From Pirellulales bacterium (GTDB lineage: Bacteria > Planctomycetota > Planctomycetia > Pirellulales > JAICIG01), in contig JAICIG010000485.1 in NCBI GenBank assembly GCA_025924495.1, positions 1 to 5,582 on the forward strand: a stretch of DNA of 5,582 nucleotides, written 5' to 3'. The position numbers and the translations under genes were made by a program. This document shows, in pieces, positions 962 through 3,193 of this stretch. The first letter of the stretch is position 1. Each line of letters starts with the position of its first letter. The notes beneath the pieces are model-generated. The model worked only from the letters and a program-made list of their open reading frames with translations, did not search any database and was not told where the DNA came from.

Positions 962-1867
962 TCATTTCTGGCCGGCCTCGACCAGCCGCACGGAAATCTC
1001 CGTCGGGACCGACGTATAGCCCGAATCGGCGGGCAGTTCGAAACGAATCAAAGCATCGCCAGGACGTGCATCGCTGGGGACCCGAACCGGGCCGTGATAG
1101 AGCACGCCTCAGCAGCGTTCGAGAAACTCGTTCAGCCGCTCTCGCCGTCGCCCTTCGGCATCGGTATAAATCAGCGTGGCCAGTACCGGCACGTCTTTAG
1201 GTAAGAACTCTTGGGAGACGGCGGCAAACGTGTTTTTGCCCACTCCCCGATGTCCCATGAAGACAGGGAAATCGGTCTCTCCGCCGATCGTGAGGTCCTT
1301 GGTCCAAATCCAACGCTGAAAACTGAACTGCCCGCTGGCATCGAACCACAGCACTGGGGCTTGGGCGGGAGAAGCGGCAAATTGATTGTATGGCCCCGCC
1401 TCTTCGGCATAGCCGCCGCGCAACGGTTGCTTGCCTTGCCACTGCATTCGCAGAAACACGCTGCCATCGTCGCTCGTCCGTCGACTCACCGACAACTCCG
1501 TGTGTACTTCCTCCGTATTTGGGTCTTTGAATTGCCCCACGTCGAATTGCACGGTGCGCTCCCGCTTGTCCACCTTGCCTTCGATTCGCTCGTCCGCTTC
1601 GCTTAAGTCTCCGTTGGCGTTGCGATCGAAATAGAGCACGTCGTACTGCTCGAGATCAGCGGCCGATTTGTCGAGCACGGCCCACACGCGTGTCTGCGCC
1701 TGCGGACCGAACAAATACAGCCCGTACAGCGGCTCCTTGGCGACGTACGACGGTTGCTTCTTGATCTGGCGATCGACCTTTGAAAGATCGGGCGGTTCCG
1801 CGCCAACGGCGCTCGACGACGCCAGACCGCACAGAGTAATCGCCGCCAACACAGTCTTCCATCGCAT
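962..1867 (-). CDS. Probable exported selenoprotein with C-Sec motif (in-frame UGA at 1109-1111)
   Basis: The 301-residue protein is read from ATG at 1867 to TGA at 962-964, with an internal UGA at codon 253. Residues 1-23 form a Sec-type signal peptide ending in AVGA. Residues 81-92 (DRNANGDLSEAD) resemble an EF-hand calcium loop. The middle is mostly beta-rich with no domain I can name. The UGA follows Cys252 directly (LERC-U-GVLYHGPVRVP), and 48 more residues follow in the same frame. Cys252 is the only cysteine left after signal removal, so a Cys-Sec pair would be the sole redox centre, comparable to the C-terminal GCUG of mammalian thioredoxin reductase. A hairpin at a SECIS-like distance follows (1062-1108). 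The start has an AGGAG 8 nt upstream, and the gene lies 21 nt after the upstream selenoprotein gene, so the two are probably co-transcribed. The alternative is a nonsense mutation or sequence error at a Cys or Trp codon, giving a 252-residue truncated product. The biological role is unknown. Confidence 0.8.
1062..1108 (-). promoter_or_regulatory. Candidate bacterial SECIS element of the downstream selenoprotein gene
   Basis: The RNA directly after the UGA can fold in two stacked parts. An outer stem pairs GGCGUGC (1102-1108) with GCACGUCC (1062-1069), leaving one bulged U. An inner hairpin (1078-1093) pairs GGCCC with GGGUCC, again with one bulged U, around the loop GGUUC. The apical loop begins 20 nt after the UGA and opens with GG. 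Known bacterial SECIS elements lie within the coding region shortly after the UGA and need G in the apical loop; SelB binds them. In E. coli fdhF the bulged U is on the 5' side of the stem, whereas here it is on the 3' side. GC-rich DNA forms hairpins easily, so position and loop content matter more than stability. Confidence 0.6.
1109..1111 (-). other. In-frame UGA, predicted selenocysteine codon (residue 253)
   Basis: The minus-strand reading is TGC TGA GGC (Cys-UGA-Gly). Both sides stay open in one frame: 252 codons before and 48 after, the latter with GC-rich third positions (33 of 48) and protein-like content. Sec next to the only mature cysteine fits a selenenylsulfide redox pair. TGA at 962-964 appears to be the true stop. 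Confidence 0.78.
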
Positions 1868-1875
1868 GGCTCGCT

Positions 1876-1880
1876 CTCCT
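1876..1880 (-). promoter_or_regulatory. Shine-Dalgarno site, downstream selenoprotein gene
   Basis: AGGAG on the minus strand lies 8 nt before the ATG at 1867 and within the 21-nt gap after the upstream gene's TAA. It supports this start and separate re-initiation within one mRNA. Confidence 0.75.
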
Positions 1881-1888
1881 AACCAGGA

Positions 1889-3181
1889 TTATCGATCAGC
1901 CCTCAACGGCCCGCGCAATTCAGCACTCTTCACGCGACGTTTCTTGGCCAAGGGATCGAGGTACCAGCGATAACCGCCGGCATCGTTAAAGAACAAGTAG
2001 TCGTGGTTTTCGCTCAACCAGGCGTTCCAGGCGGCCGCTGTGGCCTCGGCGCCGGGCCCATCGGGCGCATACCGAGCGAGCAGCGTCCGAGCCGATCTTG
2101 CAGCGTCTCCCGAATCGGCTCGCGCCGTAATCGCCTTTTCGAGGAAGGCCAGCGTGTTGGGCGCCGCGCCGAGCGATTTTGCCTCCTCATCGACAACGAG
2201 CCTGCCTTCGGCATCGGCGTACAAATAAGGAAGATTCTCGCGACGCCACGCACTGCGCTCCGCCTCATTCAACCGTTCGAACTCCTTGTAAGTTCGATCC
2301 GACAAGAGATACGCAAGGAGTTTCAGCGGATCGTCGGAATGCCGGAGTGCACGTTCGACCGCGCTGCGATCGCGGGGCGCCACCGCCGTGAAAACAGAAG
2401 GCGTGAAAGCAATCGGCCGGTCCTCGGTAAATCGAGCAATATAGACGATCGAGTTGATGAGCAGCGCATCACCCGTGTCGTTCATCTCGGCGGGCGACTG
2501 CTCGAACCCGAAGTGCAGCAGGTTCCCTTGTCGCCAAATGGCGCCGGCGCGCGGCGTCTTGCCGTTCATGCCGCCGCACATCATCTCGAGATCGGGAGCG
2601 TCGGCAAATTTATAGACATAGGTGCACCAGCCGCTGTCGTAACGCTTCTGTTGGTCATCGACTAGCGGCAGCACGTCAACTGTGTCTTGCTTCAGTTCGC
2701 CGGCAAATACGCCGGCCGGGCGCTGAACGGTCCGCGTTATGGCGATCGGCAGAGGGGAACGGAAGATCTCGTGGTCGCGTAACCCGTACGCGAAAGGTTC
2801 GAGGCACGTTCACCCCGAGCCGCCGGCAATCTGCCAGACTCCGGCCAGCAGTAGCCCCGCACTGCCGAGCAACACCGTCGGCTTCGACCACGCCTCGCGT
2901 TCGCCCAAGGGCGACTTGTAATCCGCCGACCGTTTGTCTTGTTGCGACCAATCAAGCAACACTACGTCGGCGTCTTGCGCCTGAGCCGGATCAAACGTCT
3001 CGCGATTCGCGACATCGACCCGAGAGAAGTGCTTTTCCAACAACTCAACAAATGCTCGCTGCCGCGGCGTATCGAGGTTGCCCACGTACAAGACGCGTTG
3101 GGGAAAATCGAGCGGAGCGGCAAAGCACGCCCCAGCCATCATCAGCCATGCCAGAGCGGCAAGCTTAAAGACACGCGTCAT
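1889..3181 (-). CDS. Probable exported selenoprotein with Sec-Thr-Cys motif and ThuA-like N-terminal half (in-frame UGA at 2810-2812)
   Basis: The gene encodes 430 residues from ATG at 3181 (AAGGAGG 5 nt upstream) to TAA at 1889-1891, with UGA at codon 124. Residues 1-22 are a signal peptide (AGACFAA; Cys19 could be a weak lipobox). Residues 27-115 alternate strands and helices (RVLYVGN, RQRAFVELLEKHF, ADVVLLDW), resembling ThuA/flavodoxin-like folds (inference). The UGA sits in GGSG-U-TCLEPFAYG, giving U124-T-C126, a redox-type U-x-C motif. The only other mature cysteines are C186 (SGWC) and C202 (EMMCGG). The C-terminal half is helix-rich and ends with an aromatic segment, DYLFFNDAGGYRWYLDPLAKKRR. 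Between the UGA and the first later start candidate (GTG at 2674) there are 45 open, protein-like codons with no good internal start, so the 261-residue downstream piece is not an independent gene. A perfect 7-bp hairpin with loop CGGGU follows the UGA. This is the first gene of the operon. The role is unknown; an exported oxidoreductase is a guess from the motif. Confidence 0.83.
2768..2803 (-). promoter_or_regulatory. Candidate bacterial SECIS element of the upstream selenoprotein gene
   Basis: On the minus-strand RNA the stem UCGCGUA (2787-2793) pairs perfectly with UACGCGA (2775-2781) around the 5-nt loop CGGGU (2782-2786). An outer CUCG/CGAG stem (2800-2803 with 2768-2771) closes the structure. 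The apical loop starts 23 nt after the UGA and contains GGGU, compared with the GGUC loop 18 nt after the UGA in E. coli fdhF. The perfect stem, distance and loop all fit a bacterial SECIS element; the bulged U of the E. coli element is absent. Confidence 0.72.
2810..2812 (-). other. In-frame UGA, predicted selenocysteine codon (residue 124)
   Basis: The local reading is GGC-TGA-ACG-TGC, giving Gly-Sec-Thr-Cys. The 123 upstream codons and 306 downstream codons are in one phase (3181 and 2674 differ by 507 nt, a multiple of three). Sec two residues before Cys is a common redox arrangement in selenoproteins and their C-x-C homologues. Confidence 0.83.
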
Positions 3182-3186
3182 CTCCG

Positions 3187-3193
3187 CCTCCTT
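3187..3193 (-). promoter_or_regulatory. Shine-Dalgarno site, upstream selenoprotein gene
   Basis: AAGGAGG on the minus strand is a near-perfect anti-16S match 5 nt before the ATG at 3181. It fixes the start and shows that the 123-residue open segment is the real 5' end of a translated gene. Confidence 0.85.

What the first reader, a model, noticed from the sequence alone, without database searches (positions are those of the whole stretch)
962..3181. Two adjacent genes each with one in-frame UGA: a candidate bicistronic operon of exported selenoproteins
Two co-directional genes 21 nt apart each contain exactly one internal UGA, with protein-like sequence in the same frame on both sides, strong ribosome sites at both starts, signal peptides on both products, and a SECIS-like hairpin at the expected distance after each UGA. 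The UGA falls in redox-type contexts (U-x-C and C-U). Two independent nonsense mutations would not be expected to share all these features. Exported selenoproteins paired in one operon are uncommon, and the families are not ones I recognise as characterised.
Basis: partly seen in the sequence, partly recalled or inferred. Interest (0 to 1): 0.95.

Follow-up and report, generated by a model that had tools for sequence, protein, structure and literature searches.

The report
Two unannotated exported selenoprotein families
Two neighbouring genes of a likely planctomycete bacterium are each interrupted by a UGA codon that is predicted to be read as the rare amino acid selenocysteine; the same UGA sits at the same place in relatives from other genomes, so ordinary gene finding cuts both families short.

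Summary
Gene 1 (3181..1889, minus strand, 430 codons, UGA at codon 124, GSG-U-TC) and gene 2 (1867..962, 301 codons, UGA at codon 253, RC-U-G) lie 21 nt apart. Both UGAs are family features. Gene 1: 14 of 392 genomes of a planctomycete phylum carry a homologue with TGA in the same U-x-C motif; the 118 full-length homologues among the 120 listed have Cys there. Gene 2: 117 of 119 listed homologues (window's own aside) end exactly at Arg-Cys, where genomes show TGA followed by conserved protein; distant members have Cys-Cys. selA is present in 14 of 14 genomes with TGA-form gene 1, 15 of 16 with TGA-form gene 2, but 1 of 8 tested with its Cys-Cys form. Gene 1 has a covarying SECIS-type hairpin; gene 2's fits the SECIS model but does not exceed codon chance. 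Neither family resembles an entry of the 119-family inventory I read, nor matches NCBIfam. AlphaFold puts a ThuA/glutaminase-like fold on gene 1 and an Ig-like domain, completed only by read-through, on gene 2. Some gene 1 relatives are fused to DsbD_N, suggesting cell-envelope thiol/selenol redox. The host's own Sec machinery and Sec insertion are untested; the gene pair was not found elsewhere.

The parts
1889..3181 (-). Gene 1: predicted exported protein of 430 residues read through one UGA; family with U-x-C (Sec) or C-x-C (Cys) motif
2810..2812 (-). In-frame UGA, codon 124 of gene 1 (predicted selenocysteine)
2775..2793 (-). SECIS-type hairpin of gene 1: 7-bp stem UCGCGUA/UACGCGA, loop CGGGU
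3187..3192 (-). AGGAGG, likely ribosome-binding site of gene 1
3119..3181 (-). Gene 1 signal-peptide-like segment, residues 1-21
   Evidence: inspection
2420..3109 (-). Gene 1 residues 25-254: predicted class I glutaminase/ThuA-like fold
962..1867 (-). Gene 2: predicted exported protein of 301 residues read through one UGA; its own stop is UGA at 962-964
1109..1111 (-). In-frame UGA, codon 253 of gene 2 (predicted selenocysteine, next to Cys252)
1079..1093 (-). SECIS-model hairpin of gene 2: 6-bp stem GGCCCG/CGGGUC, loop GUU
1876..1880 (-). AGGAG, likely ribosome-binding site of gene 2
1802..1867 (-). Gene 2 signal-peptide-like segment, residues 1-22
   Evidence: inspection
971..1336 (-). Gene 2 residues 178-299: predicted Ig-like sandwich that contains the UGA and is completed only by read-through

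Best explanation
These are two adjacent genes for predicted exported selenoproteins, in each of which one in-frame UGA, found at the same codon in homologues from other genomes, is likely decoded as selenocysteine. The predicted steps: SelB with Sec-tRNA is recruited by the hairpin just after the UGA; the products are exported; gene 1 then carries a Sec-x-Cys pair on a ThuA/glutaminase-like domain, and gene 2 a vicinal Cys-Sec pair inside an Ig-like domain. The pairs most likely work as thiol/selenol redox centres in the cell envelope, with gene 1 probably re-reduced by a DsbD-type relay, because some relatives of gene 1 are fused to the DsbD N-terminal domain. Shown here: conserved UGA position, conserved protein on both sides, Cys replacements, co-occurrence with selA, a covarying hairpin for gene 1, DsbD_N fusions. 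Inferred: Sec insertion itself, export, redox activity, electron donor, and any partnership of the two proteins. The confidence given is for Sec decoding of both UGAs; I put the redox role at about 0.7.
For: Gene 1: of 392 genomes in the phylum of G001 (a Planctomycetia MAG), 18 had a match and 14 of these carry TGA at the motif position, including the four close ones (L036-L039) with G-x-G-TGA-T-C-L. The 118 full-length homologues among the 120 listed (of 831) have Cys there. Gene 2: of 119 listed homologues apart from the window's own P0123, 117 end at Arg-Cys. DNA of the loci shows TGA there, then conserved G-x-L-x-H-G-P-V-R-V-P in the close ones; database entry P0189 equals the L001 reading up to that TGA. 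Cys-Cys forms without a stop were read in ten genomes (L014, L019; L080, L082-L086, L088, L089, L091, L092), and P0174 has Cys at the position. selA over cut-off: 14 of 14 genomes with TGA-form gene 1, 15 of 16 with TGA-form gene 2, 1 of 8 tested with Cys-Cys gene 2; Fisher p 1.8e-4 for gene 2, genomes related. Gene 1 hairpin: 11 chosen sequences, 97.4% of cells paired, 14 cells with a change on both sides, 0 of 500 shuffles as high for either. Residues 124 and 126 of gene 1 and Cys252 of gene 2 are invariant in alignments A3 and A2. DsbD_N over the Pfam cut-off in L045, L048, L051, P0081 and P0086.
Against: The window's own genome is not held, so its Sec genes were not tested; selD was tested in no genome. 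Gene 2's hairpin is no better than synonymous codon choice, and total folding energy is not unusual for either window gene. In one search the number of covarying pairs (3; 302 of 500 shuffles as high) and of pair types (4; 480 of 500) is not above shuffles. G003, with TGA-form gene 2, has none of selA, selB or tRNA-Sec over cut-off (a 3.2-Mb MAG). G001 has selB only as two fragments below cut-off and no tRNA-Sec over cut-off; G226 lacks tRNA-Sec and G228 selB over cut-off. G445 has Cys-form gene 2 and selA. In G477 and G427 the residue before the TGA is Gly, so the Cys partner is not universal. The two genes were not found side by side elsewhere. No enzymatic function is known.
Confidence: 0.9

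Rival explanations
1. Gene 1 is a selenoprotein, but its Sec/Cys is a hydrolytic or transfer nucleophile of a ThuA/glutaminase-like enzyme rather than a redox centre.
For: Residues 25-254 match class I glutaminase and ThuA-like folds.
Against: By the order of strands and helices the nucleophile elbow falls near Gly106-Ser107, before residue 124 (inference). A second Cys two residues on is invariant in A3, and DsbD_N fusions point to thiol redox.
Confidence: 0.2
2. UGA in gene 2 is a true stop, and the DNA behind it is conserved for another reason.
For: 117 of 119 listed database proteins end there; the hairpin is not above codon chance.
Against: The sequence after the UGA is conserved as protein (GVLCHGPVRVP and the like), Cys-Cys members read through without a stop, and the predicted Ig-like domain (residues 178-299) includes most of the 48 residues behind the UGA.
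Confidence: 0.03
3. The genes are pseudogenes or carry sequencing errors.
For: One UGA each would look like a nonsense mutation.
Against: The same codon is TGA in independently sequenced genomes, and the rest of the frame stays open in most of them.
Confidence: 0.01
4. The host reads UGA everywhere as Trp or Gly (another genetic code).
For: Both frames are open under TGA=U.
Against: Gene 2 itself ends in UGA, and relatives have Cys, not Trp or Gly, at these codons.
Confidence: 0.01

Closest known systems
Bacterial selenoproteins with a CU or UxC motif (for example KCU-star NF033934, SaoC NF040734, thioredoxin-like Sec.2), as listed in Table 1 of PMC13188914
   Same: Vicinal Cys-Sec or Sec-x-Cys motif; in-frame UGA
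   Different: No NCBIfam model matches either protein at E up to 10
CTP synthase C-terminal region-related selenoprotein (NF004836, GxUxG)
   Same: A glutamine amidotransferase named as a selenoprotein in PMC13188914; gene 1 has a glutaminase-like predicted fold
   Different: Gene 1 has GSGUTC and no match to that model; its Sec lies after the elbow region (inference)
ThuA-like proteins (1t0b, 4jqs)
   Different: No Pfam match by sequence; extra helical C-terminal half and U-x-C motif
DsbD N-terminal domain (PF11412)
   Same: Fused to some relatives of gene 1
   Different: Not found in gene 1 itself
Selenoprotein operons (grdA-grdB, SAO, Tso; section 9 of PMC13188914)
   Same: Selenoprotein genes side by side
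   Different: Other families; the pairing here was not found in the other loci examined

Membership tests
Bacterial selenoprotein gene | In-frame UGA with conserved protein in the same frame on both sides | tested here: met
Bacterial selenoprotein gene | UGA aligned with Cys in other homologues | tested here: met
   gene 1: the 118 full-length homologues among the 120 listed; gene 2: Cys-Cys forms in ten genomes, P0174
Bacterial selenoprotein gene | bSECIS model: loop 3-9 nt, stem 4-16 bp, G in the first two loop bases, 16-37 nt from UGA, MFE at most -7.5 | tested here: met
   both window hairpins; beyond codon chance for gene 1 only
Bacterial selenoprotein gene | Sec machinery in genomes with the UGA form | tested here: met
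   selA in 14 of 14 (gene 1) and 15 of 16 (gene 2); selB and tRNA-Sec incomplete in G001, G003, G226 and G228
Bacterial selenoprotein gene | Sec machinery in the window's own genome | not testable with these tools
   no genome held
Bacterial selenoprotein gene | Selenium shown in the product | not testable with these tools
   needs experiment
Selenoprotein families with an NCBIfam model | Match to the family's model | tested here: not met
   0 families at E up to 10 for both proteins
Families of Table 1 of PMC13188914 without an NCBIfam model | Sequence match to the family's representative | not tested
   Table read, names and motifs compared only; Pfam-based families covered, which gave no match over a cut-off
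ThuA / class I glutaminase (gene 1) | Fold | tested here: met
   (predicted model)
ThuA / class I glutaminase (gene 1) | Pfam match by sequence | tested here: not met
   0 families at E up to 1
ThuA / class I glutaminase (gene 1) | Catalytic residues at the elbow | not tested
   coordinates of the model were not examined

The most novel reading that the evidence does not exclude
Planctomycetota carry an unannotated cell-envelope selenoproteome: a Sec-x-Cys protein on a ThuA/glutaminase-like fold, coupled or fused to DsbD-type domains, and an Ig-like Cys-Sec protein form a selenium-based redox relay outside the cytoplasm, which in this organism is encoded as one operon.
Probability: 0.25. Interest if true: 0.85.

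Novelty: new member of a known kind. Interest (0 to 1): 0.68.

Why it matters
Two families are hidden by ordinary gene finding because it stops at the UGA: the listed database homologues of gene 2 lose their last 48 or so residues, and gene 1 homologues with TGA come out in two pieces. Neither resembles an entry of the 119-family inventory I read. If confirmed they place Sec on folds other than the usual thioredoxin fold, point to selenium use in the planctomycete cell envelope, and give direct tests (75Se labelling, Sec-to-Cys exchange). selB over cut-off in 234 of 392 genomes of the phylum suggests that more such genes remain to be found.

Tried and rejected
Folding energy of the 45 nt after each UGA against 1000 synonymous shuffles: no excess for either window gene; of 28 TGA-form sequences only L047 stood out. 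The stricter SECIS-type score separated gene 1 but not gene 2: 6 of 17 gene 1 sequences (L041, L042, L045, L046, L049, L051) were not below p = 0.05, nor 10 of 11 gene 2 sequences.

Genome neighbourhood: I read the neighbouring frames by eye and saw no neighbour common to most loci. One pair stands out: the gene 1 relatives of G189 and G161 lie near LpxC and LpxB genes. The other neighbours were not scanned, apart from one methyltransferase near gene 2 of G001 and a frame near gene 2 of G356 that gave no match.

More Cys-form DNA for gene 1 was sought in the phylum of G003: 1 of 145 genomes matched and the match (query 195-407) did not cover the motif. A search with residues 215-301 of gene 2 found only two entries, both ending at the UGA. 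Profile searches of solved structures by sequence gave nothing convincing. Rfam gave no match in the window. Promoter- and terminator-like sites were about as many as in shuffles.

Selections made before counts: A4 used 11 of 17 distinct gene 1 sequences, those whose hairpin falls in the window's register, which favours that structure; L043, L047 and L055 form hairpins in other registers, L042 and L046 a bulged one, L041 a weak one. Duplicate loci (L004-L006, L056, L059, L060, L062) were dropped; L003 (frame break behind the UGA) was dropped. Gene 2 sequences read later (L023, L077-L079, L081, L090) were not added. A2 and A3 used part of the 120 listed homologues each. The DsbD_N scan took five TGA-form relatives picked by eye for their long C-termini, two short ones (no match), and P0081 and P0086, which were already marked PF11412. 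The selA count for Cys-Cys gene 2 leaves out G465 and G515 (not tested), G215 (Ala-Pro at the two positions, no selA) and G217 (match stops before the position; selB but no selA). Genomes are related, so the Fisher values overstate independence.

Papers: PMC13188914 outline, sections 5 and 9, section 7 parts 1-2 of 3 (all of Table 1) and passages; PMC12013277, PMC5029168 and PMC4807772 passages only; other papers as search listings only. The supplementary tables of PMC4807772, which list selenoprotein candidates of two planctomycetes, were not seen, and Haft and Tolstoy 2025 is not held, so earlier mention of either family there is not excluded. Searches for prior reports. Gene names given by eye to unscanned neighbours and the signal peptides rest on recall and inspection.

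Full report
What is there. On the minus strand of the window, gene 1 (3181..1889) and gene 2 (1867..962) follow each other with 21 nt between them. Each is open from start to stop except for one UGA: codon 124 of 430 in gene 1 and codon 253 of 301 in gene 2. Gene 1 ends in TAA and gene 2 in UGA, and both have purine-rich ribosome-binding sites. The flanking genes encode a D-isomer-specific 2-hydroxyacid dehydrogenase, a beta-propeller protein and a Gfo/Idh/MocA oxidoreductase. The gene 2 homologues that bear organism names are planctomycete MAGs, among them Pirellulales, Gemmataceae and Planctomycetaceae, so the host is likely a planctomycete. No genome is held for it.

Gene 1. A protein search found 831 homologues and listed 120. 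The 118 full-length ones have Cys at the UGA position, in the motif G-C-T-C. The two closest, P0003 and P0004 (88 and 91% identical), begin only behind that position, as expected if their genes also carry a UGA; their DNA was not seen. In 392 genomes of the phylum of G001, 18 had a match. Reading the DNA, 14 of these genomes have TGA at the motif: G028, G112, G202 and G099 with G-x-G-TGA-T-C-L, and G210, G131, G189, G128, G390, G161, G014, G354, G168 and G349 in more distant relatives with TGA-x-C-L. L041 of G131 has a second TGA near its end. G380 has Cys; the matches in G262, G158 and G066 do not show the motif. All 14 TGA-form genomes have selA over the curated cut-off. G380 has selA in two pieces, each under the cut-off.

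Gene 2. Of 213 homologues 120 were listed; one is the window's own P0123. Of the other 119, 117 end exactly in Arg-Cys, where the UGA stands in the window. The exceptions are P0146, which ends in unrelated sequence, and P0174, which continues and has Cys at the position. One of the 117, P0189, equals the L001 reading up to its TGA. A contig scan gave three loci, all with TGA there and the same protein continuing behind it, in L003 with a frame break further on. Two genome searches (23 of 392 matched; 18 of 170 matched) gave further TGA forms. In all I read the TGA form in 16 genomes: G001, G002, G003, G356, G122, G228, G118, G161, G258, G248, G226, G477, G448, G523, G427 and G401. In G477 and G427 the residue before the TGA is Gly, not Cys. 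Members with Cys-Cys and no stop were read in ten genomes, eight of which were tested for selA (G108, G090, G443, G446, G486, G442, G445, G525; not G465 and G515). selA is over cut-off in 15 of 16 TGA-form genomes and in 1 of those 8 (Fisher p 1.8e-4). G215 has neither Sec nor Cys there and no selA.

Hairpins. PMC13188914 gives the bacterial SECIS model, and both window hairpins meet it. For gene 1 the stem recurs in the same register in 11 of 17 distinct sequences. In these 11, 97.4% of cells are paired and three of seven pairs change on both sides; none of 500 shuffles is as high for paired cells, double-changed cells or covariation score, while the number of covarying pairs and of pair types is not above shuffles. 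Against synonymous codon shuffles the SECIS-type score is high in the window (p = 0.0035) and over the 17 sequences (Fisher 1.5e-10, not independent). None of the four controls without Sec (L044, L014 and L019 with Cys, L012 with Pro) stands out. For gene 2 all 11 sequences form the stem, with one pair changed on both sides in three sequences, but the protein sequence alone makes such a stem likely (Fisher p = 0.11).

Known or new. Neither protein has an NCBIfam match, and Pfam gives none for gene 1 and one below its cut-off for gene 2. Table 1 of PMC13188914, read in full, lists 119 families, and no entry looks like these by name and motif; the representatives were not aligned. Planctomycetes with Sec machinery are known (PMC4807772, passages), but its table of candidates was not seen. 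I file both as new families of the known kind 'bacterial selenoprotein'. Side-by-side selenoprotein genes are known elsewhere; this pair was not found in 46 other loci searched.

Noticed in passing
L001:5205-5759 (-): Beside a gene 2 homologue, on the other strand, an exported-looking ORF of 185 residues with one in-frame UGA in a C-Y-R-U motif (CxxU, thioredoxin-like by eye); no Pfam or meaningful NCBIfam match.
   Followed up: partly
phylum of G001, 392 genomes: selB is over its curated cut-off in 234 of 392 genomes, so Sec use seems common in this phylum.
   Followed up: no
L043, L045, L048, L051, L055: Distant relatives of gene 1, also with TGA in the motif, carry a C-terminal DsbD_N-type domain (three over the Pfam cut-off, two below).
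   Followed up: partly
L099 and L102 (G189, G161): In both, the gene 1 relative lies downstream of an LpxC/FabA-domain gene and next to an LpxB gene on the other strand, a hint of a link with the outer envelope.
   Followed up: partly
window 1583-1627 (-), gene 2 residues 81-95: DRNANGDLSEADERI resembles a calcium-binding loop and is well conserved in the family; a calmodulin-like match there is not significant (E 0.93).
   Followed up: no
L003 (G003): A contig labelled Verrucomicrobia carries the UGA form of gene 2, with a frame break behind the UGA and no selA, selB or tRNA-Sec over cut-off in its 3.2-Mb genome; the contig may be misplaced.
   Followed up: no
G477 (L077) and G427 (L081): Distant gene 2 relatives where the residue before the TGA is Gly instead of Cys.
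   Followed up: no
L065:5193-5945 (+): A methyltransferase-domain gene lies about 3 kb from gene 2 in G001.
   Followed up: no
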